Shown here in pieces: positions 5,457 through 47,183 of a stretch of DNA of 64,000 nt. The stretch comes from Viola odorata. Its lineage: Eukaryota > Streptophyta > Magnoliopsida > Malpighiales > Violaceae. The stretch spans positions 1,688,001 to 1,752,000 of the forward strand of contig OY829540.1 of assembly GCA_963691705.1 (NCBI GenBank), given 5' to 3'. Each line of letters opens with the position of its first letter. Position 1 is the first letter of the stretch. Below the pieces are notes generated by a model. The model made no database searches, was not told the DNA's origin, and was given only the letters and a program-made list of their open reading frames with translations. The translations under genes were made by a program, and so were the position numbers.

Positions 5457-7813
5457 ATGTCTCATAACATAGGAGATGTGGATGTAGTAATGCAAGACAA
5501 ACAACAAGCAGAAGCTGTGGCAAATACAGAAACGCAACCTGTGGCGCCAGCTACTGCTACAGTTAAGATAGAGAAGAAAAGGAAGAAGATTGTTGGAAGA
5601 TCAGTGGTGTGGAAGCAGTTTGTTAAGCAAAAAAATGAGGATGGAGAATGGAAAGGTGCGTGTATATACTGTCAAGCTGTTTTTGCTGCTGATTCTAAGT
5701 TAGATGGTACAACTGGCATGAAAAATCATATGAAAAGGTGTAAGGAGGTACCCCTTTCTAATCAAACTGAATTGACAACTTATGTGAATCCTGATGGTAG
5801 TAAGACTGTAGTTCCTTGGAAGTTTGATCAAGAAGCTTCTAAGAGGGCTTTAGCACTAATGATAATTGAGGATGAACTTCCTTTTAGGCTTGTAGAGGGT
5901 GCTGGGTTTAGAAATTTCATGGAAACTGTGCAACCTAGGTTTATAGTGCCTTCTAGGAACACAATCAGTAGGCTTTGTTATAAGTTGTATGCTGATGAGA
6001 AGCTGAAATTGAAAGGATTTTGATGACTAATTGTGAAAGGCTTTCTATTACCACTGACACATGGACATCCATTCAGAGGATTAACTACATGGTTGTGACT
6101 GCTCACTTTATTGATAATGACTGGAATTTACAAAAAAAGGTGTTGAATTTTTGTCCAATCACTAGTCATAAAGGTGATGCGATAGGAAAATCTATTGAGA
6201 AATGTTTGATTGATTGGGGAATTAATAAGGTGTTTACAATCACAGTAGATAATGCTAGCTCAAATGACTTAGCCGTTGCACATATTAGGAAGAAAATGAA
6301 TCAGTGGGGTACAAGTATTTGTGAGGGGGAGTTTCTTCATGTAAGGTGCATTGCACATATAGTGAATTTGATGGTATTGCATGGGCTGACCACTGTGGGA
6401 ACCTCAATCATTAGGATTAGAGAGGCAGTAAGGTACATTAGACAATCTCCAGCTAGATTGTCTAAGTTCAAGGAGTGTGCAGAAAGAGAGCATGTTGACT
6501 CTAAATCATTGTTGTGCTTAGATGTGTGTACAAGGTGGAACTCCACCTATTTGATGTTAGATTCTGCGTTGAAGTTTGAGAAGACCTTTGAGGCATATGA
6601 GGATGTGGATCCCTTCTACAAGATTGAGCTTCTGATGAGGGAAGAAAAAAGAAAGAACAAGGGAAAGAAAAAATCAAATGATGAGGATTTGGCAGAAATT
6701 TTGGCGTTTGATGATGAGGAATATCCAGAGGAGGATGGTGTTGAATATGTGGATGCAAGAACTGATGGTGGTGGGGGTGGTGTACCAACAGAAGGTGATT
6801 GGGTGAATGTGAGGAGATTGTGTCACACCTTGAGGTATTTTTATGATCTAACTTGCTTTGTGTCAGGCTCTAAGTATGTTACTGCTAATGCTTATTTTGA
6901 TCAAGTATCTAATGTAGCTTCCATGTTGAGAGGGTGGGAGAAGAGTAGTGACATAGAACTTAAGAGATTGGCAGAAAAAATGCATGAAAAGTTTGATAAG
7001 TACTGGGGTAACGTGGCTAAGTTTAATACTCTTCTTTATATTGCTGCTGTGTTTGATCCAAGAAAGAAGATGGATTATGTAGCTTTTTCTCTGTTAGATG
7101 TGCATGGGGAGTTTGTTGGGAAAGAGTTGGCAGAAAAAGTGAAGAGGGATACGGAAAGAATGTATGTAGGGTACTGGGAGTTGTATAAGAAGGGAAAAGA
7201 ACATGGTGTTGTAGGTGATACTGATGTGGAGAAGGGAGGGTGCAGTGGAAGAGAAAGTGTTTGTGAGGGGTCTGTAGACATGTCTGCTGAGTTGATTAGT
7301 GCTAGAGAAGAAAGGTTTAAGAGGTTCAAGGAAGCTACTGGAGGTTCTCTCCAAATCAAGTCAGAACTGGAATCTTACTTGCAAGAGAGTGTTATTGAAG
7401 GAGGAAAATATTTTTCCATCTTGGACTGGTGGAAAAAGCATGCTCCAAGGTTCCCTGTTCTTTCTAAGATGGCAAGGGATGTACTAGCTGTCCAAGTTTC
7501 CATAGTGGCATCTGAATCTGCATTCAGTACTGGAGGACGAGTCCTTGACCCTTTTAGGAGCTCATTGACTCCAATGGTTGTGCAAGCCTTAATATGTGCA
7601 CAAGATTGGTTCAGGACTTCAAGACAATCCATGAAACTTGAAGAGGACCTTGCTGACCTTGAACAATTGGAAAGTGGTAAGTTGTTTTCAACTGAGTTTT
7701 GGCCATTTATTATCTATGTTTAATTACTCATATTTTCTGATTTTTTCTTTCATGTTTTTTGGTTTTTAGAATACTCTCAAATGTCAGTGGAGACCACTGT
7801 TATAGAAATTTAG
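5457..7813 (+). pseudogene. hAT transposase with frameshift and one intron
   Basis: The transposase of the 3842-8717 element. The first part (5457-6023) carries a BED-type zinc finger at about residues 49-96 (two Cys, His, Cys). The second part, from 6020, holds the RNase H-like core: TTDTWTS and TVDNAS supply the first two acidic residues and SESAFSTGG the glutamate. It ends in an hAT C-terminal dimerisation region. The two parts are in different frames and abut near 6020, consistent with loss of one base. The apparent stop at 7723 lies in a 93-base GT-AG intron (7677-7769); splicing gives a short final exon ending at 7813. RICESLEEPER/DAYSLEEPER-like architecture. An intact protein is not encoded as read here. 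Confidence 0.9.
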
Positions 7814-14189: not shown

Positions 14190-15995
14190 TTGCCACGCCT
14201 GTCCAAGTCAGCTCAAGGAATACAGTTTATAGATTTTGCAAAGAATTACAGCATAAAATACGAAATACCACAAATTAACATAGCACCAGAAAACACAAAG
14301 AGTAATGATTTTTTATTAGGATTAAATTTTATATGCAGTTTAAATGGTAGTATCACAATAGCTAGAAATTGTATAACAATCAGTAAAAATGTTTATACAT
14401 TTCCAACAAATAAATACATACAGACAGCGGAGTTCGCACGAAAGCGTGGTGGACAACCTACCTTAGAATTCTTAAAACCAGAAACAAAAAGAACAAATTA
14501 CATAGAAAACGAAACATACACTATGATAGGAAGAGAATTGGCCTTAGATTTAGAAAAAGGACCAGATATTAAAATTAGTAAAAACTACCCGATAATACAA
14601 AGATTAGAAAAAATAGGATTAATAGGTGAAGACATTACTAAAAACAAAGTAGAATATAAAGCCAAAATGCAGATTAAGAATCCTGATATAAGGATTGTAA
14701 CAGCAAATATAGATTACAGTCCATTAGATAGAGAGGAATTCAAAAAACAAATTCCTGAAATGATAAACCAGGGATTAATTAGAAGATCAGATAGTCCTCA
14801 TAGAACAGCAGCCTTTATAGTTAGAAATCACAGTGAGATCAAAAGAGGAAAAGCCAGAATAGTCTACAATTATAAAAGATTAAATGATAACACAATAGAT
14901 GATGCTTATAACATCCCAAACAAAGACAGCCTAATAGGGTTAATACAACAGAAAAAGATTTTTAGTAAATTTGATTTAAAATCAGGATACAATCAATTAA
15001 AGTTAGAAGAATGGTTTAAACAATGGACAGCGTTTACATGTTCAGAAGGACATTTCGAATGGAATGTTCTTTCGTTCGGACTAAAGAATGCACCAGCAGT
15101 ATTTCAAAGATTTATGGATTCTATATTCTTAGAATTCGATTTTTGCCTAGTATATATAGACGATATTTTAGTAGCCAGTAATAATATCAAAGAGCATGAA
15201 AATCATTTAAGACAGGTTTTTCAGAAAATAGAAGAACATAACATAGTGGTAAGTAAAAGAAAAATGGAATTATATAAAAGAAAAATATCCTTTCTAGGAT
15301 TAGAAATAGGAAATGGAAAAATAGAATTACAGCCTCATATAGCAGAAACTATTCTAAAATTTCCAGAAAAATTAGAAGGTTTAAAACAGATACAAGCATT
15401 CTTAGGCATACTAAACTATGCTAGAAAGTTTATCCCCAATTTGAGCAAATTGGTAGGACCTCTTTATAGTAAAACAGCAAAAAATGGACAAAGAAATTTT
15501 AACAAAGAAGATATAGAACTAGTAAAACGAATTAAAGATCAGGTTAGAAAAATTAAGCCATTAGAGTTACCCTTAATAACAGATTATATCATCATTGAAT
15601 GTGATGGTAGTAAAGAAGGATGGGGAGCAGTTATGATCTGTAAACCCAATAAATATTCAGAAAAAGAAACAGAAAAGATTGCCGCTTATGCCAGTGGTAA
15701 TTTTAAAACAGGACAAAATTGGACAAGCCTAGATTTTGAAATTCAAGCATTAATAAATGCTCTAGATAAATTTAAGATTCATTTACAGAATGAATTTACA
15801 GTCAGAACAGATTGTGAAGCAATAGTGAAGTTTCTAAAGAACGAAAATAGTAAAAAGATAAACAGAACAAGATGGGTAAATTTACAGAATTTAATACAGG
15901 GAAATGGATATAAAATCTGTTTCGAACATATAAAAGGAAAAAATAACAGTTTGGCAGATTTACTGTCTAGAAATATTGAAAAATTATTTAAATGA
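14190..15995 (+). pseudogene. caulimovirid polymerase: partial protease, RT and RNase H
   Basis: A 601-codon frame. The first about 60 residues resemble the end of a pepsin-like protease (LLGLNFI) but the catalytic DTG/DSG part is missing. The RT domain spans about residues 170-400 with FDLKSGYNQ, SFGLKNAPAVFQ and the catalytic YIDD at 322-325. RNase H follows (about 460-600) with all four acidic positions recognisable: ECDGS, FEIQAL, RTDCEA and ADLLSR. Similarity is to pararetroviral rather than Gypsy RT. The frame is open throughout, so decay since integration is modest, but the gene is 5'-truncated. The stop overlaps the next start (ATGA at 15992-15995). Confidence 0.9.
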
Positions 15996-17569
15996 TACAG
16001 GTAAGAATGAAGAAAAGGGTGATAAAACCCAAAGAACAGATGTTCAAGGAACAGACAGAAAACAAACAGGAGCCAGACACTCAAGAATCAGTTTCAGACA
16101 GAACCATCATGTACAGAAACAATCTGGCTATGCCAGTCACAATTACAGAAAGAGGATCATCATCCTCTAATATACAGAAAATGGTTCCATCCACACAGAG
16201 AGCCTCTCCAGTTAGAGGAGCAAACAGAGATCTTAGATTTGGTACAATGTACCTTACAGAATTTACAGAAGGAGGTAACAAAAAATTCAAACCCTTTGAA
16301 GGATTGAATATAGATAGAGAACAGCAATGTTTGCTAGATAATATCTGGCACATACAGACCCTTCCTGCAGCAACACAGTTCAAAGTACAATGCTTAAATG
16401 CCTTAAGCATGTATTTTTCAGACAAAAATCCTAAGATTCACAGAAAGTCTTTTTCACATTATGTGATATACAGAGGTTTAAAAACAGGAGTTTTCAACAG
16501 TTTTAATACAGTTAAAAATTTCATCATGTGTCAAAATCCCATATACGTGGGATATCACAGTTTCTCTGAGGCCTTAGAAGAAGCAAGGGCCCAATTAGGC
16601 CCAAACTTCTACATAGAACCTGAAACAGTCAGGCCTTACTCAGAAGTAGCTAGAGAAGATACTAGCCAGCTCATAGCAAGGCTAGAAGATAAAAACAGAA
16701 AGTTAGAGGAGCAGTTGGCCCAACTCCAACAACAGACAGCTACACAGATTGCTTTCTTAGAACAAAAGAGAGAAAAAGCAGAGAAACAGACAAAATCCAT
16801 AGAAACACTGGCAACACAAAGGGAAAATATAATGAAAAGTTTAAACAGCAAAGTCCAACAGCTAGACAAATTCCTTAAAAAAGAGAAAACTCCAGTAAAC
16901 AGAAGCAATACACAGCTTAAAGCCAGACTCCTAGACATGCCTGCTAGTAGAGTCCTCCAGCCCCTATTTGAAGAATGGCCTGAAGGAGAAGAAATAATCA
17001 AACAGAAAACAGAAAGTAGTCATTTTGAAGGACTACTTAACGCACAGAAAGAGATAGTAAAAATGCATTTTGGAGAACCAGGATGGAAATTTAGAGGAGT
17101 AAAGGTCATCCAAAAACCCTTTGCCTTAAACAGAGGACCATTCTCCAGATATCTAAAAGACACAGAAACAGCCGGACTATTCAAACTTCAAGTAGATTTA
17201 AATATCACAGATCTTCCTTTTCAAAAAATCCTGTCATTCTTCCATATGGGAATGTTAGAACAGATAACTTTCAGACTAGAAGAAGAAGGAAAAATTGAAC
17301 AATATCTAGAAGAATTTGGAGAGAAATTCTTCCTGATTATAGGAAACATGGCTGTTAGAAAGAAACTAAGATGCATCATAGATTCTACTCTCCCAGCAGC
17401 AATGGGATTCGAAATAGTCCCTGCAAAGAAGAGAATTTTTGTTCTTACAGTAGACACAGACAGAGATCATATAGAAGACATCAAAATGATTGCTTTGGAT
17501 CCATACGATTTCTCAGAACTAGAAAATCCAGAAATATACAAAGCAGCACAGAGTTCTAATTCTAGATAA
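15992..17569 (+). pseudogene. caulimovirid transactivator/inclusion-body protein-like, 3' end broken
   Basis: A 525-codon frame starting 4 bases before the polymerase stop. Around residues 150-195 is a block (VIYRGLKTGVFNSF, then a following HSFSEALEEA) matching the RNase H1 N-terminal-type fold found in caulimovirid transactivators. A coiled coil follows at about 225-305. The C-terminus runs into the movement-protein fragment at about 17557, so the natural end is lost. Position directly downstream of the polymerase gene is as in transactivator-containing genera. Confidence 0.75.
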
Positions 17570-34676: not shown

Positions 34677-36274
34677 ATGACGTGCTTGTCGAGAGCACGA
34701 TCAAATAATTAAAACTTATCACATGCAATAAAAAAGGATTGAAGACAGTGGCAAGAGGTTCGATCCACAGAGAATGGTGAAGACATACACAAGACAAGGC
34801 CAGATATAAAATGAAACAATAAAAGAAACAATTGGGGGCGGGGGGTTGGTTGGTTGGTTAATCTAGTTAACCAAGATAGAGATGGTTGCTAACAAGACAA
34901 TTAATAAAAATAGAAATCAAGGGCAAGACATGCAAACAGAAATCAAATAAAGAAATAAAGTCAAAAGAGAAGAGATTAAAGAAATAAAACCAGAAGAGAA
35001 GAGATCTTAGCAAAGGACATTCTCGACTTGCGTCGAGGGTAAGATAATCATCGGCGCAAAAATATTCTACTCTCATGCCATAGATATGCTATAGGGGTCA
35101 TGTTTCCACGTAGGCCCCCTACTCACCTTCTTAGGTAGAAGCCATCCCCAGTTTCCACATATGAGGTAGCCTTGACGTTTCGCCGTCCTCCCAGGCACGA
35201 ATGCGGGGAGGCACTATTCAAAACGCCCATGAAGTAGAGGCAAGACAGATCTAGGGCGTGACATCTCAGTGTGTCAAGCTCGTATCATATACCCTAAACG
35301 ACCATTTACCCCTAGACGAAAGACCTCTCGCGATGTCCCCACTAGGTGTCTACTCTAACTCAAGGATTGACGTCAGTTATAACCAAGAGAATGATAGTAA
35401 TCATCTAGGATTAGTCACTAGTTGGCCTGACTACTAATCTTGCCTTAGACGAATTAACAAGAAGCCGACAAACAATCGAATACAACAATAAGAATATATT
35501 AAACACATTTAGGCCTCTTAACTACCCATGCAACCCTCAAAATACCTCTGCTAAGAAGGGAGAATCTAGCTACTCAAACCACAAAACAAATAAATAAAAT
35601 AGGAAAAGAAAGATTGCATAAAAGAAGAACAAGAAGAAGAAAACTAATAAATGTTACCGGCCGGAGCAAAGCTCCGGTTAAGTTCAATGGCTACTGGAAA
35701 TAGAGGTCTCAGCCACCACCCAAAAGGGGAAGGAGAGAAAAGGAGGCGGCTGCCAAAAGAAGAGTGGAAAAATATTTACAAGATGTCTAAAACCCTAAAA
35801 ACTAGAGGTTTATATAGTGTCTAGCCCACAAGAGGACAAAATCCAGCTAAGGGACTACAAAAAGATAAATTCCAGCTAAGGGGAGAGAGTGACAACATAT
35901 GGAGTGTGCTGTAATATTCTGGAATCTTCTAGATGCGCTTGGAATCTTCTAGAAACGCAAGGAATCCCATGCGAATCTTCGGAGATTCCTTTCTTTGGCT
36001 TTCGATCTTGATTTGATGTGGATGCGTCACGGGTATGAGACTACTCACTGGTTTGGCTAGCGTCGAGGGCACGATGACGCTCCGATCTTCTACACCTTGA
36101 AGCTTGAAATCCCAAGAATTCCTTCAAAAATGCATCTTTTCGCTCTTTTTCTCCTGTTGGCGTTGATCTGCAATAAAGATGGAAATAAAGGTCAATTAGC
36201 AGAATCATGCCCCCGAAAAGGCTAAAATAGAGGATAAAATCACGCCTAAGAAACATGCTATCAAACATCCGGAC
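34677..36274 (-). repeat. LTR copy (left) of the pol-less element
   Basis: About 1.4 kb of this region matches 38856-40276 at high identity in the same orientation. It carries a minus-strand TATA box CACTATATAAACC at 35808-35819. Its first about 155 bases (34677-34835) are also repeated at 34100-34257. Confidence 0.8.
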
Positions 36275-38002
36275 ATTGCCCTAATGCTCGTCCTCGAGCA
36301 TTAACAAAATTGAAAACCACCTTATGTAGTGACATACATCCTCAACCTCTTAACACAAGAATAGACAAGTCATTCGACAAACTACACCTAACCAGAACAC
36401 ATCCAGCCCTAGAAAAGCACCTGCATCCGGCTAATATGATAACGACCCTATCAATCAGACTTTTCCAGACCAAGCCTATTCACCAGTAGTCCTCACCTGG
36501 ATATGTGTTTGCACTCACGCTCGCAACAAAATATGTGTTTAGGCTAATCACTCAAAAATGAAAATAATACAACACAAGGCAGAGTTTGCACGTCAATCCA
36601 AGTATGGTAGAACACATGCAAGGGCAATCTAGCGATCAGAGATAACTTTGCAAAAAGAAAAAATGGAAAAAGAAAAAGAGCAATAAGGGGTAGGGGAAGG
36701 TGTGAAGGAAAAGAAAAAAGGAAAGAAAATAAAACAGAAATAAAAGGAGAAAAGAGAAGGAAAAGAAAAATAAATCTGGAGGTGGAGGATTCCTTGGCTA
36801 GAAGGAAGGTGAATCGGTGAGCAACACTCGCTGGAGAGGGCATGAAAGCGAGGGCTAGACGATGGCTTTGGCGTTCTTTTGTGGAGGAGATCTTTGTCTG
36901 CGTTGAGGGCACAAAATGATTGCCTTTTTGTTGCTCTTGCTTTCTGTGCCTGCTGTGCTTTTATTCGAATTCAATTTGATTTTTTTTTTTTATGAAATAT
37001 CTAGCAAGCAGGCACAAATCTTTCTTCCTTTGCTCGCTCTTTGGATAGGAGCTGGAGTTGGCAATTCTTCACATTTCTTTGAGCGATTGACTTCGAGGGC
37101 TTGATACTTGATTCTACTTCCCCACACTTAAGCTTTGTTATGGTGAGGAGGTAATCTGACGTTGCTGTCCTGCCCAAGATACCTGATTTCTGCAGTTGCT
37201 CTATCGTGCCCTTGATCTTTGTATTTCTCCCCACACTTATCTTCTTCGATGTCTAGCCCTTGCCTTTCGAATGAAGAGTGTTACTCACCTGCCAAGGAAA
37301 GATCAAAGAAAAGGCTCAAGTGGTTAGAAGAGAGAATAAGGGTATCAAGGGCATGAAAAAGGAAAGAAAATGGAGAAAGAAGAAAGCAGAAAAATAAAAA
37401 GAATAGAAAGAAAAATTGCAAAGTCTCTTCGTCGTTTCGTTGCTTTCCCTTGTCTAATGGTGCCTATACCCAAGGATATTATGCAAACCTAGTCAGTGCC
37501 TAGTCAAGCATTAAATCACACATGAATAAAAAGGCATGAAGCTTATTGTGCTCACAGGGTACAAATTAAGACTACTGGGTGTCTAGGGCATGACTGGTCA
37601 TAAGGGCAAGCAGGTCAAGATGTGCATGGCAGGGCATAGATGCAATGAATGACAAGTTTCTTCCATGCATAAGAAGTCAAAAATGCATGTCCATTATGAG
37701 GGTTTTAAAACTAGGCAGTGGCAAAATTCCAAGCAAAGTCTAAAAATAAAATCCAAAAAATTTTTAAAAATCCGAAAAATATGCAATTATGCAACAAGCG
37801 AAAAATTAAACATGCAAACAAACACACAAATAAATCCCTCCCCACACTTAGGCAGCGCATCGTCCTCAATGCGAGAAGGGCACACACAGGAAAGTTCTGA
37901 AAAATAAAGAGTGAAGTAGAAATAAAAAGGGAAAGGAACGTGGGTTGCCTCCCACGAAGTGCCTCTGTTATCGTCGAGGGCACGACGTTGGCTATTCGAA
38001 CT

Positions 38003-38656
38003 TCAACCTATTCTACTAAATGCTTTCCATCCTCTTAGTTTGATGTGAATTATGACATGAAGTGGATGGTCTAGTAGCAAAACAACCTGCAGGCAACCAT
38101 AATATGATTCAAGTGTTAATTTGGGTTCCCGCAAAACAATGAGGAAAAAATTGTTATGAGTGAAAGGTGATTCAAGAAAAGGATCAATATAATAAAAAAG
38201 TTTAGAAATCTCCCTATCATATATAAATACTTTAGATCTCAAGTCCTCGATTATCTCTTCCTCAATCTCTCTTAACTCCTCCTTCTCAATCTTCCCCGGC
38301 TTGAATTCTGTGTCTAGGGTAAGACACTCTTCACAAGATTTTATGTGGTGAAAAGCCTCAAAAACCTCATTCCCTTGGCCCACCAAAGTGTCAGAACAGT
38401 TCTGGAGTTGACCTGGCAAATTTGGTTGAACAATGATTTCTGTCTCTAATTCTGCGTCTAAGGCAAGATGCTCGTCGTAAAAATCTGGCAGATTTGTGTC
38501 GCTCAATATTGTGTCTGTACTGGCCTTGAACTCCATGTTGGCTCCTGGCTCTAGAGGAAGACATCCTGGACCGTCCAATTTTAGCTCATTCGTGCGCATG
38601 AAAAGGTCCTCTAACCCATAAGACTCATTATCTTGGTCATGACGCTCAGATGGCAA
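38003..38656 (-). CDS. uncharacterised ORF in the pol-less element
   Basis: A 217-codon open frame on the minus strand, acidic (Glu/Asp-rich), with no domain I recognise. It lies between the right LTR and the purine tracts, where gag-pol would be in a complete element. It may be residual retrotransposon coding sequence. Function unknown. Confidence 0.35.
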   Translation of the reverse strand: MPSERHDQDNESYGLEDLFMRTNELKLDGPGCLPLEPGANMEFKASTDTILSDTNLPDFYDEHLALDAELETEIIVQPNLPGQLQNCSDTLVGQGNEVFEAFHHIKSCEECLTLDTEFKPGKIEKEELREIEEEIIEDLRSKVFIYDREISKLFYYIDPFLESPFTHNNFFLIVLREPKLTLESYYGCLQVVLLLDHPLHVIIHIKLRGWKAFSRIG

Positions 38657-38855
38657 CTCTCATAGAATGGCGGTTGATAAATTCTCTTCACTTAAATAGT
38701 CATCACTATCTAAGTGTTGCAAATGTTGTTCAATGGGGTGATAGGATGATTTGTGGTGTGACTGGGCAGAAGTGTTGGAGCTGCAATTCATCTATTTGTC
38801 TCTGTATTTCATATATTTGTCTCTGCATCTTAAGCTCCTACAAGACAATTACCAA

Positions 38856-40276
38856 GATAGAGATGGTTGCTAACAAGACAATTAATAAAAATAGAAATCA
38901 AGGGCACGACATGCAAACAGAAATCAAGGGCAAGACATGCAAACAAAAATCAAATAAAGAAATAAAGTCAAAAGAGAAGAGATTAAAGAAATAAAACCAG
39001 AAGAGAAGAGATCTTAGCAAAGGACATTCTCAGGTTGCGTTGAGGGCATGATAATCATCGGCGCAAAAATATTCTACTCTCATGTCATAGATATGGTATA
39101 GGGGCCATGTTTCCACGTAGGCCCTCTACTCACCTTCTTAGGTAGAAGCCACCCCCCGTTTCCATATATGAGGTGGCCATGACGTTTCGCCGTCCTCCTA
39201 GGCATGAATGCGGGGAGGCACTATTCAAAACGCCCATGAAGTGGAGGCAAGACAGATCTAGGGCGTGACATCTCAGTGTGTCAAACTCGTATCATATACC
39301 CTAAATGACCATTTACCCCTAGACGAAAGACCTCTCGCGATGTCCCCACTAGCTGTCTACTCTAACTCAAGGATTGATGTCAGTTATAACCAAGAGAATG
39401 ACACTAATCATCTAGGATTAGTCACTAGTTGGCCTGACTACTAATCTTGCCGTAGACGAATTAACAAGAAGCCGACAAACAATCGAATACAACAATAAGA
39501 ATATATTAAACACATTTAGGCCTCTTAACTACCCATGCAACCCTCAAAATACATCTGCTAAGAAGGGAGAATCTAGCTACTCATACCACAAAATAAATAA
39601 ATAAATAAAATAGGAAAAAAAAGATTGCATAAAAGAAGAACAAGAAGAAGAAAACTAATAAATGTTACTGGCCGGAGCGAAGCTCCGGTTAAGTTCAATG
39701 GTTGCTGGAAATAGAGGTCTCAACCACCACCCAAAAGGGGGAGGAGAGAAAAGGAGGTGGCTGCCAAAAGAAGAAAGTGGAAAAATATTTACAAGATGTC
39801 TAAAACCCTAAAAACTAGAGGTTTATATAGTGTCTAGCCCACAAGAGGACAAAATCCAGCTAAGGGACTACAAAAAGATAAATTCCAGCTAAGGGGAGAG
39901 AGTGACAGCACATGGAGCGTGCTGGAATATTCTGGAATCTTCTAGATGCGCATGAAATCTTCTAGAAATGTAAGGAATCCCGTGCGAATCTTCGGAGATT
40001 CCTTTCTTTGGCTTTTGATCTTGATCTGATGTGGATGCGTCACGGGCAGGAGACTGCTCACTGGTCTGGCTAGCGTCGAAGGCACGATGACTCTCCGATC
40101 TTATGGGCCTTGAAGCTTGAAATCCTAAGAATTCCTTCAAAAATGCATCTTTTCGCTCTTTTTCTCCATTTGGCGTTGATCTGCAATAAAGATGGAAATA
40201 AAGGTCAATTAGCAGAATCATGTCCCCGAAAAGGCTAAAATAGAGGATAAAATCACGCCCAAGAAACATGCTATCA
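38856..40276 (-). repeat. LTR copy (right) of the pol-less element, lacking its tail
   Basis: Direct copy of the left LTR from about 34868 onward. The about 190-base U5 tail and the primer site are missing; instead it joins internal gag-like sequence at about 38845-38855. Confidence 0.8.
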
Positions 40277-40539: not shown

Positions 40540-41409
40540 TGATACGATCCTAGTTGCGTAGGATGCGTAACGAGTAATTCCCGATCTAGTACTAAGCTTA
40601 GATTTCGATGCGGAAGAATGATAACTCAATACGACTGTTTAACCCTGCTAATATCCGTGTATTAGCCAACCTAAACTTATCGAATGAGGTTCTTGAAATG
40701 ATCTCTAACCCTGCTAATATCCTGTATTAGCCAAACTAGAGCTACGATTCAATGGAGTGGATGTTCGGGTTTTACTTGCTATCCTAATCGAGTATCCGGA
40801 CTCAAAGAGGGACAAGGTTCGCGAAGAATAATTGAGAAAAATCTCTGTTTTTTTATTTATTTCAATATAACGTCCATAATAATGAAGAGGGTGACTCCCT
40901 TTAAATAGGAGAAAACCCTAAATCCTTACAATAGGAAACCTTCTCCTAATAGAACTTCTAATTAAGTAATTAAAATAAATCTAAACTAATTTAGCTAATT
41001 AATAAGGAAACTAATTAAATAAATCCATAACTAATAAAACATAGAAATCACCAAATCAGGAAAAACCATAATAAATCCATAATTCCCTTTTTGGTGCAAT
41101 CTGGAACTACCAGGACGTGATTATATCGAGTGTGTGGCATGATCACATCAGCTGGAGCTCGATGCTACTGGTCTTGACGTAATTACTCCGGGATAGGGCG
41201 TAATCACGTCCATTCTGCACAGGGAAATCTCGACGAGCATAACTTTTGATCCATCCGTCCGATTGATCTGAAACATGCCCCAAAGGGAAGCTAACATCTT
41301 GAAGTTTACATTAAGACTCTGTTCTCTCAAATCGGACTCCATTTGCTTGTTAATCTGCTTGTTACGAACATACAATGTGCCATGCATGATACATCTTGGG
41401 ATCGTATCA
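40540..41409 (-). repeat. 3' LTR of the gag-only element
   Basis: 870 bases, paired with 46315-47183. It contains a minus-strand TATA-like CTATTTAAAGG near 40895. Confidence 0.9.
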
Positions 41410-42377
41410 TTCCCTCCTTCGGAAAGATTCGTCCTCGAATCTTGATCAACATAATCTGTCCAAGAAATCCCAGCAATTCCACACTCAATGTACACTCTCC
41501 ATCTCTTGCGTTTTCTTGGTTGCCAAAGTGTATAATCCACAACACACACATTCTGTGACGCCTTGAATGAGTATTCTCTATGGCTCGCTTCATAAACCTG
41601 TTGTAGCCCTTCTTGGAACGGATTGGCCCAAGCGAGCTCCTCTACAAATGTGCATAAGGCTCCCTTGGATAAGACCCTTATAATTCTTGGTTCGGTCTCC
41701 ACATGAACCTTGCCGCTGTTCATAGTAAAAGCTTGCTGCTTGTGTTCCAATGAACCTTTTATTGCTCTATTTCCCTTCTCTCCCTCTTCAAAATGATTCG
41801 TCCTCGAATTGTGCACAAAGCAAGAGAAAAAAAACACAACCTCCATGGAAAATACATTGATACGAGCAATACTATATGGCACATATGCAATCTCGAATCT
41901 CATCAAAGGAATTCCAAAATCAACATTCATACGAATAGTATATGCTTCTGCAATAAGAAACGTACCATGGCATATTGACTGATCCACACACTCAACTACA
42001 GCAACCGTCGCACCATGACCAACCTTGGCAGATCTGTCGTCAAACCATCCATGAACTTGATCAAAGTATCGATCAATCCCATAGTCTTTCGGCTGAATGA
42101 TGCGCTCATCAATTGCTACCACCACATCTTGCGCACTAGCAATACAACTACTCAAAACGGTCAACTGAATCCCATTGGTGGTAGTCTTGGTCTCACCAAT
42201 CTGACCACTCACAACCACACCACTACTCTTCACAATGTTCTCACACTTAGGCGTCTTGGTCTCACCAATCTGAACACTCAACTCTTCTCTTTTTCTCTCA
42301 ATATCTCTAGTGATCTCATACTCGGCGTAAAACTTCACTGGTACTTTCAACTGTTCGAGAGAATCCTTAAGGGTATC
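41148..42377 (-). pseudogene. gag, C-terminal continuation
   Basis: The continuation of the gag-only frame after the inner insertion. It is open for about 410 codons and runs through the purine tract into the 3' LTR. No protease, RT or integrase motif is visible. Removing the inner element and one GTATC copy would leave the frame open across the junction, so the inner insertion is what broke it. Confidence 0.7.
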
Positions 42378-43343
42378 TGATGCGATCACGACCGAAACTC
42401 GGAAGAGAAATCCGGCCGAGATAACATTCAACCAAAGGAGGATCTAGCTCATGGGTTTGAGCACACAAACAACAATAAAAACAGTAGGAAATATGGATGA
42501 ACGGAGGGAGACACGCAACGGAAAGGATTAACTTACAAATTACCCGATTGAATGGCGGAGGGATTAGAGATGACGATTGAGACACGAGGAGGTAACAACG
42601 GGTTACACATGTGAAGGATTCTTGTTCTTTTTGATTGACTCAAGCCACGGCGATCCAAGACCAAGGCAAGCACCAATTTGATTTCCCAAAGAGAGATCGG
42701 GAGGAGTATTCTCACTCGACGGATCTCTCTCAAGGAGGGGTGAGCAATGGATGAATGAATAAAAGAAGGAGTAAGCTCAACTTAAACATTCATTCATCAT
42801 CCAAAACTAAGTTACAAAATGAGGAGAAAGTCCCTATTTATACTAGGTTACAATAAGCCTACACTATTACAAAAATGACCCTGAAAATGTGCTTGGAAAA
42901 CAAAATTCGGTCACCAAAACAGAAGCTAGCGTGATTCACGTTAAGGTCTAAACGTGATCACGTTAGCCAACTTTTCCTTACCGTGATCACGTTAATCCCT
43001 ATCGTGATCACGCCAAGAACCGCGCGCTAAAATGTCAACGAGCATAACTTTTGATCCACCCGTCCGATTGGCCTGAAACTTGTCCCAAATGAAAGCTAAC
43101 ATCTTGAAGTTTCCATCCAGCCTCTGATCTCTCAAATCGGACTCCATTTGCTTGTCCATATGCTTGTTGCGAACACGCGATGCGATTCTGACTTGTATAG
43201 GGCCTAGGCATGTTGAGGAAATGACACTTGATTCCCGACCTTGGACATGATTGACGCTCATCTGCAAGGCTCGGCGGTCCATAACCGGTCCTCTTGGCTT
43301 CATGCCAAATTGTTCCAACTCGAAGGGAGCCGTGATCGCATCA
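42378..43343 (-). repeat. LTR, flipped copy
   Basis: Begins TGATGCGATCACG and ends CGTGATCGCATCA, 13-bp inverted termini. It reads as an LTR only on the minus strand, with its TATA box at about 42835-42843. Confidence 0.9.
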
Positions 43344-44305
43344 ATTGGTAGCGGAGCTTCTGGGCTTTTGGGTTTGTAGATCTGTGTTTGTTTGTGTTGT
43401 TGCTGTTGATCTTCCGTTTGTGTGTTGTCGAGATGATTTTTTGTCCGAAAATCATCTTGTGTTTTCGTTTCCAAGAGTCGTTCCTCTTGTGCCTGATTTT
43501 CTGTCCGAAAATCAGTTTGTTGTGTCTGTTTCTTTTCTGTTTTGTACGAGTTGTATCACTCAGAACATTCTGAATTTTTGTATGCTTAAAATTCAGTCTG
43601 TGTGGAACAACTTTCGTTTTTGTGTCGACTGCAATCTCGGTGAAATTTATATACTTTTTGGCTTCCAAAGAAACGTGTGCAGATTTTTCCGAGAAAAACA
43701 GTTTCTGTGTTTGAGTCTGTTTCCAGCAATTTTCCCGTGGGAATAATCTTGTCCTTCCTTCGTGAAAGTTGTAGTTCTGTGTCTTAGGAGTCTTTCTGTC
43801 AATTTTCGTAATGTTTAGCCTTCGTTTGCTATTTTTGTTGAGTTTTTTTCGGAAGTCTGTCAAGAGCATCTTGGTGTTCTTGGTGTTCTTCATGTTCTTC
43901 TTGTGTTCTTCATGTGTTCATCTTGTTCTTGAGTCTTTTCTTTTGATCCATCTGAGTTTGGATGATCAAAAAGTTTTTGTTTCCCATTTGTTTATTCTTT
44001 CCTTAGGAATAAACAAATATAAATTGTGCACACAAGTCTTTGTTCTTATCCTTGCATTTAATGCAAGCAAGACTTTTTGACCTAATCCTTAGACTTGTTG
44101 ACGAAGTGCCACTTGTCCCCTCAATAAATGTGAGCGAATTATTTGTGAGCGCAACTTTTGCGAGAGTTTTAAACACCGAGTGTAAACACGTGAGCGAGTG
44201 TTTTTAACTAACGCAAATATCTATATATATATATATATCGTTTGTTATTTTACAGAAAATAAAAAGCAAGGATTCGAGGACGAATCCTTTCGAAGGGGAA
44301 GGAGT
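43344..44305 (+). other. interior of the inverted-LTR element
   Basis: About 960 non-coding bases, T-rich on the + strand, with a primer-binding-like site at 43346 and the purine tract at 44292-44305. A short (AT)n lies near 44224. Open frames here are short and show no domain. Confidence 0.8.
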
Positions 44306-45273
44306 TGATGTGATCACGGCTCCCTTCGAGTTGGAACAATTTGGCATGAAGCCAAGAGGACCGGTTATGGACCGCCGAGCCTTGCAGATGAGCGTCAATC
44401 ATGTCCAAGGTCGGGAATCAAGTGTCATTTCCTCAACATGCCTAGGCCCTATACAAGTCAGAATCGCATTGCGTGTTCGCAACAAGCATATGGACAAGCA
44501 AATGGAGTCCGATTTGAGAGATCAGAGGCTGGATGGAAACTTCAAGATGTTAGCTTTCATTTGGGACAAGTTTCAGGCCAATCGGACGGGTGGATCAAAA
44601 GTTATGCTCGTTGACATTTTAGCGCGCGGTTCTTGGCGTGATCACGATAGGGATTAACGTGATCACGGTAAGGAAAAGTTGGCTAACATGATCACGTTTA
44701 GACCTTAACGTGAATCACGCTAGCTTCTGTTTTGGTGACCGAATTTTGTTTTCCAAGCACATTTTCAGGGTCATTTTTGTAATAGTGTAGGCTTATTGTA
44801 ACCTAGTATAAATAGGGACTTTCTCCTCATTTTGTAACTTAGTTTTGGATGATGAATGAATGTTTAAGTTGAGCTTACTCCTTCTTTTATTCATTCATCC
44901 ATTGCTCACCCCTCCTTGAGAGAGATCCGTCGAGTGAGAATACTCCTCCCGATCTCTCTTTGGGAAATCAAATTGGTGCTTGCCTTGGTCTTGGATCGTC
45001 GTGGCTTGAGTCAATCAAAAAGAACAAGAATCCTTCACATGTGTAACCCGTTGTTACCTCCTCGTGTCTCAATCGTCATCTCTAATCCCTCCGCCATTCA
45101 ATCGGGTAATTTGTAAGTTAATCCTTTCCGTTGCGTGTCTCCCTCCGTTCATCCATATTTCCTACTGTTTTTATTGTTGTTTGTGTGCTCAAACCCATAT
45201 GAGCTAGATCCTCCTTTGGTTGAATGTTATCTCGGCCGGATTTCTCTTCCGAGTTTCGGCCGTGATCGCATCA
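44306..45273 (+). repeat. LTR, normally oriented copy
   Basis: 968 bases following the purine tract. It is the reverse complement of 42378-43343 at very high identity. Confidence 0.9.
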
Positions 45274-45278
45274 GTATC

Positions 45279-45983
45279 AATCTCGTCCGGAGTCACCTCA
45301 TCATTGTCCTCAATGATCACTCTATTGTTGGGACATTGGCTAGAAGTGTGTCCTCGACCTGTGCATATATGGCATAAAATATCTCGCGTTCGCACACGAG
45401 TTGAAGATGGAACATCTCTTGCCAAACATGTGTTGGGGTTGTCTCTCCGCTTGCGCTCGCCGCTGCATAGCCCTGGTGGTGGCCTATGCACACCATAACG
45501 TATTGACCCTTGTGCATCATAGTACTCATCATAATACCTCTGTTGTGATCCTTGCGCTTCATAGTGTTGCTCTTGCCAGTGGGCGGGTAGGAATCGTTGC
45601 CTCATGAATATCTTCATATCATTCCAAGTTGAGATTGGATCGATTCTAAGGCTTCGCATTTGATAATTCAAATCATTCCACCAATGAGTAGCGTCTCCAA
45701 AGAACCCAACCGATGCCATCTTTACTTTCTCCTCCTCCGAGTAGTTGTGATAAACAAAGATCGATTGAATCTTCCTTTCCCACGCTAGATATGTATCCGG
45801 GTTATTTGTTCCTCCAAAGGAAGGGATTTTCATCTTTGTTTTTCCTAGATTGGCATCATCTCTGTTCTCAAATCTAGGTCGCCTTTCACCCATTCTGTCT
45901 CGCCTCATATAGGCATCATCTTCATACCACTGCTTCTCACGCCACTCATGCCAACGCGCCTGATACTCTCGACTTCTCAACAT
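45279..45983 (-). pseudogene. gag, N-terminal part with zinc knuckle
   Basis: Gag of the gag-only element: 235 codons before the nested insertion. The Gypsy retrotransposon-gag region is recognisable (PSFGGTNNPDTYLAWERKI, then THWWNDL and FMRQRFLP). A complete CCHC knuckle CHICTGRGHTSSQC follows. The frame is cut by the GTATC target site of the inner element and continues in phase at 42377 on the far side. Confidence 0.85.
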
Positions 45984-46314
45984 GACTCTTAATAAAAATA
46001 AAAATAAACAAAGACACTTTCGGGGACTATTTTTTTATGACTCTTTTGACACTTTTTGGGGACTGATTTCTGTGACCCTATTTGACACTTCGGGGACTGA
46101 TTTTTTTGTGACTCTTTTTTCGTAAATAAAAGACTCAAACAAACCGCACTTCCGATTTGTTTTTACAAAGACACAAAACTAGATCTAGAAAATTATTTTC
46201 TAAATCGACTCGACTCCAAACGGAAATAACAAGACACAAAATGAAAAGATAACTTGAAAAGTAAAGATAGAGGGATAGATACCAACCATAGAACGCCTTT
46301 GCTCGGCTACCAAC

Positions 46315-47183
46315 TGATACGATCCTAGTTGCGTAGGATGCGTAACGAGTAATTCCCGATCTAGTTCTAAGCTTGGATTTCGATGCGGAAGAATGATAAC
46401 TCAATACGACTATTTAACCCTGCTAATATCCGTGTATTAGCCAACCTAAACTTATCGAATGAGGTTCTTGAAATGATCTCTAACCCTGCTAATATCATGT
46501 ATTAGCCAAACTAGAGCTACGATTCAATGGAGTGGATGTTCGGGTTTTACTTGCTATCCTAATCGAGTATCCGGACTCAAAGAGGGACAAGGTTCGCGAA
46601 GAATAATTGAGAAAACTCTTTGGTTTTTTATTTATTTCAATATAACGTCCATAATAATGAAGAGGGTGGCTCCTTTAAATAGGAGAAAACCCTAAATCCT
46701 TACAATAGGAAACCTTCTCCTAATAGAACTTCTAATTAAGTAATTAAAATAAACCTAAACTAATTTAGCTAATTAATAAGGAAACTAATTAAATAAATCC
46801 ATAACTAATAAAGCATAGAAATCACCAAATCAGGAAAAACCATAATAAATCCATAATTCCCTTTTTGGCGCAATCTGGAACTGCCAGGACGTGATTACAT
46901 CGAGTGTGTGGCGTGATCACATCAGCTGGAGCTCGATGCTACTGGTCTTGATGTAATTACGCCGGGATAGGGCGTAATCACGTCTATTCTGCACAGGGAA
47001 ATCTCGACGAGCATAACTTTTGATCCATTCATCCGATTGATCTGAAACGTGTCCCAAAGGGAAGCTAACATCTTGAAGTTTACAGCAAGACTCTGTTCTC
47101 TCAAATCGGACTCCATTTGCTTGTTCATCTGCTTGTTACGAACATACGATGTGCCATGCATGATACATCCTGGGATCGTATCA
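46315..47183 (-). repeat. 5' LTR of the gag-only element
   Basis: 869 bases, direct copy of 40540-41409 with few differences, indicating recent insertion. Confidence 0.9.

What the first reader, a model, noticed from the sequence alone, without database searches (positions are those of the whole stretch)
42378..45273. LTR retroelement inserted with its two LTRs in opposite orientation
The two 966-968-bp LTRs are reverse complements, yet the unit is flanked by a perfect 5-bp duplication (GTATC) and sits at a clean break in a gag frame. The primer site and purine tract of the interior agree with the right LTR; only the left LTR is flipped. Normal reverse transcription makes direct LTRs. Possible explanations are a snap-back or template-switch event during cDNA synthesis, an autointegration-type product that was later inserted, or inversion of one LTR after insertion helped by its 13-bp inverted termini. 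If more copies exist in this form, it would be a distinct inverted-LTR family.
Basis: partly seen in the sequence, partly recalled or inferred. Interest (0 to 1): 0.8.

Follow-up and report, generated by a model that had tools for sequence, protein, structure and literature searches.

The report
Retroelements with a snapped-back terminal repeat
A plant retroelement carries one of its two end repeats backwards, and several relatives in the same genome carry other backward or hairpin versions, which is best read as DNA copies that folded back or switched strands while being made and were still inserted normally.

Summary
Confirmed and extended. The unit at 42378-45273 has a 966-bp left LTR that is the reverse complement of its 968-bp right LTR, a 960-bp non-coding interior with PBS and PPT in the right-LTR sense, and a GTATC duplication. 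It is neither a one-off nor a breeding family. In the window's 699-Mb plant genome the nearest siblings have direct LTRs. Six insertions with perfect 5-bp duplications carry an inverted LTR or LTR piece at the 5' end: this one, a second full inverted LTR of another subfamily, two R-U5 hairpins in place of the 5' LTR, and two composites. A third hairpin has no checked duplication. The three hairpins begin at the same base, and both arms of each carry the same locus-specific variants, so each arose separately by self-copying. Here both ends of the flipped LTR carry the U5-type base; a simple flip would give one U3-type end. Best explanation (0.72): minus-strand cDNA snapped back or switched template, here within the 15-bp terminal inverted repeat, rebuilt a PBS-bearing strong-stop, and integrase used two U5 ends. 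The single steps are known or plausible; I found no report of recurrent integrated products with target duplications in the library searched.

The parts
42373..42377 (.). left target-site duplication GTATC
   Evidence: sequence
42378..43343 (-). left (PBS-side) LTR, inverted, 966 bp; its outer end is a U5 end
43329..43343 (.). hybrid inner junction: GCCGTGATCGCATCA, U5-type C at terminal position 6, joined to U3-rc sequence (GGGAGCC...)
43344..43345 (+). 2-nt spacer AT between LTR end and PBS, as in direct siblings L009 and L010
43346..43357 (+). primer-binding site TGGTAGCGGAGC (tRNA not identified)
   Evidence: sequence; the same or nearly the same at the 5' junction of direct copies
43346..44305 (+). 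960-bp non-coding interior; longest stop-free stretch in six frames is 190 codons, in one antisense frame
   Evidence: 98.6% to L009 and 98.9-99.4% in two pieces to L010
44292..44304 (+). polypurine tract GAAGGGGAAGGAG
   Evidence: sequence
44306..45273 (+). right LTR, 968 bp, normal orientation for the interior
44807..44812 (+). TATA box of the right LTR; inferred start of R at 44841
   Evidence: start of R inferred from spacing and from the hairpins of related LTRs
45274..45278 (.). right target-site duplication GTATC
   Evidence: sequence
40540..47183 (-). host element with direct LTRs 40540-41409 and 46314-47183 and duplication GCTGC; weak gag match

Best explanation
The unit is a non-autonomous LTR retroelement of Ty3/gypsy type whose cDNA was made wrongly and then integrated normally. 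During reverse transcription a minus-strand DNA end lying in the 15-bp terminal inverted repeat of the LTR paired with the opposite end of an LTR strand. Either the U3' end folded onto its own 5' U5' end and copied the last 6 nt of U5, the spacer and the tRNA 3' end (giving the PBS), or the strand that had just copied PBS and U5 end jumped to the U3' end of an LTR strand. Both give the same product: LTR(reversed)-AT-PBS-interior-PPT-LTR, with a U5 end at each outer tip. Integrase accepted the two U5 ends and made the 5-bp duplication. Shown: architecture, duplication, hybrid junction, relatives of the same and neighbouring kinds. Inferred: the strand-level steps, the start of R, the tRNA copy, acceptance of two U5 ends by integrase. 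As it stands both LTR promoters point outwards, so the element should make no genomic RNA of its own (inference).
For: (1) Hybrid junction. At U3 position 6, 36 of 36 LTR starts found by a motif carry T; they lie in 21 of the 25 loci scanned. L027, which the motif missed, carries C, C and T. The U5 end of the window element carries C. Its flipped LTR carries C at both ends, as the model predicts. (2) Recurrence with 5 of 5 duplication bases: window GTATC; L049 CCCCT, a full inverted 5' LTR of another subfamily directly against the PBS; L026 TGCTG and L040/L062 TTAGG, R-U5 hairpins as 5' LTR; L028 GTTGC and L042 GTGAG, composites. (3) The hairpins at L026, L040 and L041 start at the same point, 33 nt after the TATA box of the donor LTR type. 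Variants private to one locus are shared by both arms of its hairpin: 1 column for L026, 4 for L040, 11 for L041. The only columns where the arms differ in the same way across loci (51, 58-60) lie in the segment that would have been the primer. (4) Apart from position 6, the two window LTRs differ by 3 substitutions and a 2-bp insertion in the right and 1 substitution in the left, none shared by both, and they share a T at column 307 where the 6 LTRs of L009-L012 have C (L013a also has T). Both thus date from one insertion. [quoted passage not shown]
Against: The junction argument at this locus rests on one base, a CpG; the related L027 has C there in two LTRs. Predicted folds do not clearly single out the donor LTR type: with RNA parameters the 3' end of its strong-stop DNA is paired and that of the window's type is not, but with DNA parameters the last bases are unpaired in both, although both stems are stronger than shuffles. 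The R start is inferred, not from transcripts. No reads or other accessions were available. L028 and L042 need further template switches, and the filler in L028 has no source in the fetched loci. I know of no direct evidence that the integrase of this group joins two U5 ends.
Confidence: 0.72

Rival explanations
1. Post-insertion inversion: a normal element was inserted, and recombination or end-joining between the terminal inverted repeats of the left LTR flipped that LTR in place.
For: The left LTR is bounded by 15-bp inverted repeats; all flanks stay in place.
Against: One crossover in each repeat gives one U3-type and one U5-type end; both ends are U5-type. It can be rescued if the ancestral U3 base was C, as in two LTRs of L027, and the right LTR then mutated. 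It cannot by itself explain L049, where inverted and normal LTR belong to different subfamilies, or the hairpins.
Confidence: 0.11
2. Replication or repair template switch after insertion copied the right LTR backwards over the left one.
For: Two independent switches can give U5-type bases at both ends.
Against: A late copy would share the private mutations of the right LTR; none of its 3 substitutions and one indel is shared. It does not explain L049 (LTRs of different subfamilies) or the common start point of three hairpins.
Confidence: 0.09
3. Two insertions at the same pentamer, an inverted solo LTR and a complete element, followed by deletion between the 15-bp direct repeats formed by the LTR ends.
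For: Gives the same junctions; the 15-bp copies are present at 43329 and 45259.
Against: Needs two insertions at one pentamer, one precise deletion and two nearly identical LTRs sharing the column-307 variant.
Confidence: 0.02
4. Assembly artefact.
For: No reads were available; 15-bp repeats could in principle mislead a gap closer.
Against: No N in the window, contigs of 56-86 Mb among those fetched from, two LTRs with distinct private mutations, and five further inverted or hairpin cases with their own duplications.
Confidence: 0.05

Closest known systems
Template-switch complexes of LTR retrotransposons (Sabot and Schulman 2007, PMC1950507; section 4 read)
   Same: Abnormal complexes with a single 5-bp duplication and matching outer LTRs, attributed to template switching during reverse transcription with co-packaged RNAs.
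   Different: The section I read describes an additional internal LTR between two core sequences; a term search of that paper found no 'inverted', 'inversion', 'reverse complement' or 'opposite'. Here an end LTR is inverted or a hairpin.
[quoted passage not shown] Guo et al. 1997 seen only as a cited reference)
   Same: Strong-stop DNA primes on itself where R has a large stem-loop; L026, L040 and L041 have the sequence this would leave.
   Different: Described there as heterogeneous aberrant DNA; here integrated chromosomal copies, two with target duplications checked. The window's junction is at the U3/U5 terminal repeats, not at the start of R.
Locust Gypsy-25 (PMC8786324, passages)
   Same: That paper says the classic structure has 'an inverted pair of LTRs'.
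   Different: A statement about a family structure, which I did not test; here the nearest siblings have direct LTRs.
DIRS and Penelope-like elements (recalled)
   Same: Retroelements with inverted or variably oriented terminal repeats.
   Different: They use other integration or priming modes (recalled); this element has TG...CA ends, PBS, PPT and a 5-bp duplication.

Membership tests
Ty3/gypsy-type LTR retrotransposon, non-autonomous | TG...CA LTR ends and 5-bp target duplication | tested here: met
   GTATC on both sides. These features alone do not separate Ty3 from Copia types
Ty3/gypsy-type LTR retrotransposon, non-autonomous | PBS next to the 5' LTR and PPT next to the 3' LTR | tested here: met
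   PBS 43346-43357, PPT 44292-44304; the priming tRNA was not identified
Ty3/gypsy-type LTR retrotransposon, non-autonomous | LTRs in direct orientation | tested here: not met
   inverted here; direct in siblings L009 and L010
Ty3/gypsy-type LTR retrotransposon, non-autonomous | RT-RNaseH-integrase gene order in an autonomous relative | tested here: inconclusive
   the unit itself has no such gene. A long element with related LTRs at C10 (L040/L045/L062) has ORFs matching RVT_1, then RNaseH, H2C2, rve and SH3_Tf2-1, but other LTR-like ends lie inside it and its mobilising role is not tested
Heritable inverted-LTR family | many copies descending from one inverted-LTR ancestor | tested here: not met
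   nearest copies are direct; the three hairpins are independent events
Autointegration product | an LTR end joined inside the element's own body with a short duplication (recalled) | tested here: not met
   the inner LTR end joins AT-PBS exactly
Self-primed minus-strand DNA product | outer end is U5, and the inverted arm is joined to sequence ending in U5-spacer-PBS | tested here: met
   window (only the last 6 or more bases of U5), L026, L040
Self-primed minus-strand DNA product | predicted stem that brings the 3' end of the strand onto its template | tested here: inconclusive
   terminal repeats of the LTR strand pair; the R-start stem forms but its last bases are paired only with RNA parameters
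Self-primed minus-strand DNA product | fold-back molecules seen in particles or cells | not testable with these tools
   needs cDNA sequencing
DIRS element | tyrosine recombinase and no target duplication (recalled) | tested here: not met
   5-bp duplication present; the unit has no long coding frame

The most novel reading that the evidence does not exclude
In this plant Ty3-type group, self-primed or template-switched minus strands are regularly completed and integrated. The terminal inverted repeats of the LTR and a stem at the start of R act as built-in fold-back points, the tRNA-copied PBS lets the fold-back strand stand in for plus-strand strong-stop DNA, and integrase accepts two U5 ends. 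The genome then holds a readable, datable record of the strand-transfer errors of a plant reverse transcriptase, in 5 elements (6 of 39 interiors classified) among the copies nearest to the window's.
Probability: 0.5. Interest if true: 0.75.

Novelty: new variant of a known kind. Interest (0 to 1): 0.63.

Why it matters
LTR annotation generally assumes direct LTRs (recalled), so such copies would be missed or split. If the reading holds, genomes preserve failed strand transfers as integrated copies, with the switch points visible to the base, which makes the frequency and rules of self-priming in plant retroelements measurable from assemblies. It would also mean that integrase of this group can join two U5 ends. 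Units with outward LTR promoters and long inverted repeats are also possible sources of hairpin or antisense RNA at their host locus (inference).

Tried and rejected
Plasmid and phage collections gave no match, which is uninformative for a plant element. A palindromic-LTR family, suggested when the L026 hairpin was found whole at three places (at C7 positions 34-790 of 827), was rejected because private variants are shared by the arms within a locus and not between loci. Autointegration was rejected because the join is exact at LTR end, spacer and PBS. Position 6 of the right LTR was first taken for a CpG mutation; the siblings show T to be the norm. I first took the R-start fold as an explanation for why hairpins come from one LTR type; DNA folding parameters do not bear that out, so it no longer counts as support and the confidence was lowered from 0.75 to 0.72. 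Whether the inner end of the L049 LTR is also a hybrid stayed open because a search with that LTR did not complete. The origin of the filler in L028 was not found in the fetched loci. Organism and priming tRNA were not identified.

Full report
What is there. Between two copies of GTATC lies a 2896-bp unit: an inverted LTR (42378-43343), spacer AT, PBS, a 960-bp non-coding interior, PPT, and an LTR in normal orientation (44306-45273). The two LTRs align as an inverted pair with 5 mismatches and one 2-bp gap over 970 columns. The unit sits in an LTR element on the minus strand that has direct LTRs and its own GCTGC duplication. The gag label of that host is weak: one flanking ORF matches Retrotrans_gag below the cut-off, the other has no match. 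Insert plus duplication is 2901 bp, a multiple of three, and the flanking ORFs share one frame. TATA in the right LTR lies at 44807 and R would start near 44841. Each LTR promoter therefore points out of the unit, and neither reads the interior (inference).

Where it sits. One search placed the window at C4:1688001-1752000 of a 699-Mb genome in 26 contigs. PPR, AAA-ATPase and hAT matches in the window fit a plant, an inference. A search with the right LTR scored 40 of 3139 first-look candidates, one with the interior 40 of 1654, one with the hairpin LTR 40 of 747. All counts are therefore lower bounds and biased to near relatives.

Siblings are direct. L009 (C6) has the same interior at 98.6%, L010 (C3) at 98.9-99.4% in two pieces, each with two direct LTRs of 966 bp. 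L009 has duplication CAATG; L010 shows none (AGTGT and CCTCT). L011 and L012 are solo LTRs. Among 12 direct elements whose two outer ends I compared, 11 have at least 4 of 5 matching flank bases: L009, L015, L016, L017, L019, L020, L022, L027 (three LTRs), L032, L043, L044; the exception is L010. L013 is a complex locus and was left out of that count.

Inverted relatives. Of the 40 interior copies, I classified the PBS side of 39: 21 in long loci or the window, 10 in 401-bp stretches, 8 from the adjacency of coordinates. C8:7363716 lacks its 5' part. The inverted LTR stands directly at the PBS in 2 of 39 (window, L049). A hairpin LTR stands there in 1 of 39 (L026). Three more interiors, in two elements, have a direct LTR at the PBS and an inverted piece outside it (L028; L042 with two interiors). 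The other 33 are direct at the PBS; for the 18 seen only near the PBS an inverted piece further out cannot be excluded. So 5 elements, holding 6 of 39 interiors, are of the inverted kind.

A pattern for the inverted junction (up to 3 mismatches) gave 27 places, and none for its backward-read control. Four are of the inverted type: the window (0 mismatches), C5:59429175 (L049), and two linked rearranged places on C6 (L047, L061). Nine are ordinary direct junctions. Of the other 14, two are flanks of known LTRs (C8:58836351 at L013, C6:63651204 at L034). L048 has no match to my LTR types. L064 is direct at the PBS. L063 has a U3-like LTR start beside a PBS but no match to my LTR types, so it is unclassified. 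Nine were not examined.

Structures and duplications. L049, minus strand: B-type 3' LTR, interior, PBS, spacer AG, full inverted LTR of about 1.22 kb (type C); duplication CCCCT. L026: an 827-bp palindrome of R-U5 arms with U5 ends on both sides, then AG-PBS, interior, 3' LTR of another type; duplication TGCTG. L040 with L045 and L062, minus strand, 12.55 kb: the same kind of hairpin, PBS, a different and longer interior with RVT_1, RNaseH, H2C2, rve and SH3_Tf2-1 matches, and a C-like 3' LTR; duplication TTAGG. L041: a hairpin beside a masked stretch, duplication not checked. L028: an inverted LTR plus 38 bp including the PPT, a 26-bp filler, then PPT, LTR, interior, LTR; duplication GTTGC. 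There the outer inverted LTR and the right LTR agree at 23 sites where the inner LTR differs; the inner agrees with the right against the outer at 4, and with the outer against the right at 1. So the two outer LTRs are of one origin and the inner is not a self-copy. L042: an inverted C-type U5-R piece followed by a fold-back in S-type U3, then LTR-interior-LTR-interior-LTR; duplication GTGAG. Six insertions thus have 5 of 5 duplication bases.

Hairpins are independent. In the arm alignment, 1 column is private to both arms of L026 (229), 4 to both arms of L040 (143, 144, 145, 149) and 11 to both arms of L041. The columns in which the arms differ in the same way across loci are 51 and 58-60 (L041 varies at 51 and 58). 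There the PBS-side arms carry the complement of the start of R, the piece that would have been the primer and so was not copied. In four ordinary B-type LTRs the match to the distal arm stops at hairpin position 445. In the listing the ordinary LTR matches to that arm stop at 445 or 447, apart from two fragments. This is what self-primed strong-stop DNA would leave. Folding helps less than I first thought: a stem forms at the R start of both LTR types and beats shuffles (z -3.9 and -3.6), but with DNA parameters the last bases are unpaired in both; only RNA parameters pair the end of the B type.

The window junction. U3 ends read TGATGT in 36 of 36 motif matches from 21 of 25 scanned loci; one of the 36 is the inverted LTR of L028. 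L027, which the motif missed, has C in two of three LTRs. The window's right LTR has T at its U3 end and C at its U5 end. The flipped LTR has C at both ends. Inversion by one crossover in each terminal repeat would leave one T. Extension of a U3' end on a U5' end, or a jump from a U5 copy to a U3' end, gives C at both. A fold of the single-stranded minus LTR pairs positions 1-15 with 954-968 except the mismatch at 6. This is the strongest evidence at the locus itself, but it is one CpG base.

Age. Without position 6 the LTRs differ by 4 substitutions and one 2-bp indel; 4/966 at 1.3e-8 per site and year (recalled) gives roughly 0.16 million years. All four are C-to-T type on one strand or the other. 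The T at column 695 of the right LTR also occurs in one LTR of L014. None of these changes is shared by the two LTRs, so they separated at or soon after insertion.

Print. Ten literature searches listed no report that I recognised as integrated self-primed LTR cDNA with target duplications; most hits were seen only as listings, and the library lacks most subscription papers. Sabot and Schulman 2007 (section 4) describe template-switch complexes with single duplications. PMC4668388 (passages) mentions self-priming of HIV-1 strong-stop DNA. PMC8786324 (passages) says a locust Gypsy subfamily has an inverted pair of LTRs.

Verdict. It is most likely a recurrent reverse-transcription error in one group of plant Ty3-type elements, caught by integration; a new variant of a known kind.

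Noticed in passing
L026:573-1399, L040:2175-3001, L041:2481-3240: R-U5 hairpin 5' LTRs, three independent events from B-type LTRs, starting at the same base near the inferred start of R.
   Followed up: yes
L028:2065-5852: Inverted LTR plus PPT joined head-to-head to a direct LTR-interior-LTR unit, one duplication GTTGC; 26-bp filler of unknown source.
   Followed up: partly
L042:966-5678: Three-LTR tandem with an extra inverted U5-R piece and a U3 fold-back at its 5' side, duplication GTGAG.
   Followed up: partly
L047 and L061 (C6:37.237 Mb and 37.253 Mb): Two linked copies in which a reversed PBS stands between two same-sense LTR pieces without an interior.
   Followed up: no
L063 (C5:16.12 Mb) and L064 (C1:75.32 Mb): L063: a U3-like LTR start beside a PBS in an unclassified element. 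L064: LTR pieces in opposite orientation on the two sides of an interior piece.
   Followed up: no
L013: Complex locus with several LTR pieces whose outermost ends share GGAAC.
   Followed up: no
L014: A solo LTR with the same GAGCG flanks occurs twice 3.8 kb apart, probably a local duplication.
   Followed up: no
window 44272-44287: A palindrome (GATTCGAGGACGAATC) just before the PPT, present also beside the host element's LTR (about 41426-41441); the fold-back in L028 lies at it.
   Followed up: partly
window 14190-17569: ORF with Peptidase_A3B, RVT_1 and RNaseH matches (14190-15995) and an adjoining ORF, like an endogenous plant pararetrovirus; described only.
   Followed up: no
window 34908-40276: Direct repeats of about 1.36 kb, 94.9% identical (34908-36263 and 38915-40276), probably another LTR element beside the host element.
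   Followed up: no
window 6020-7723: hAT transposase-like ORF.
   Followed up: no
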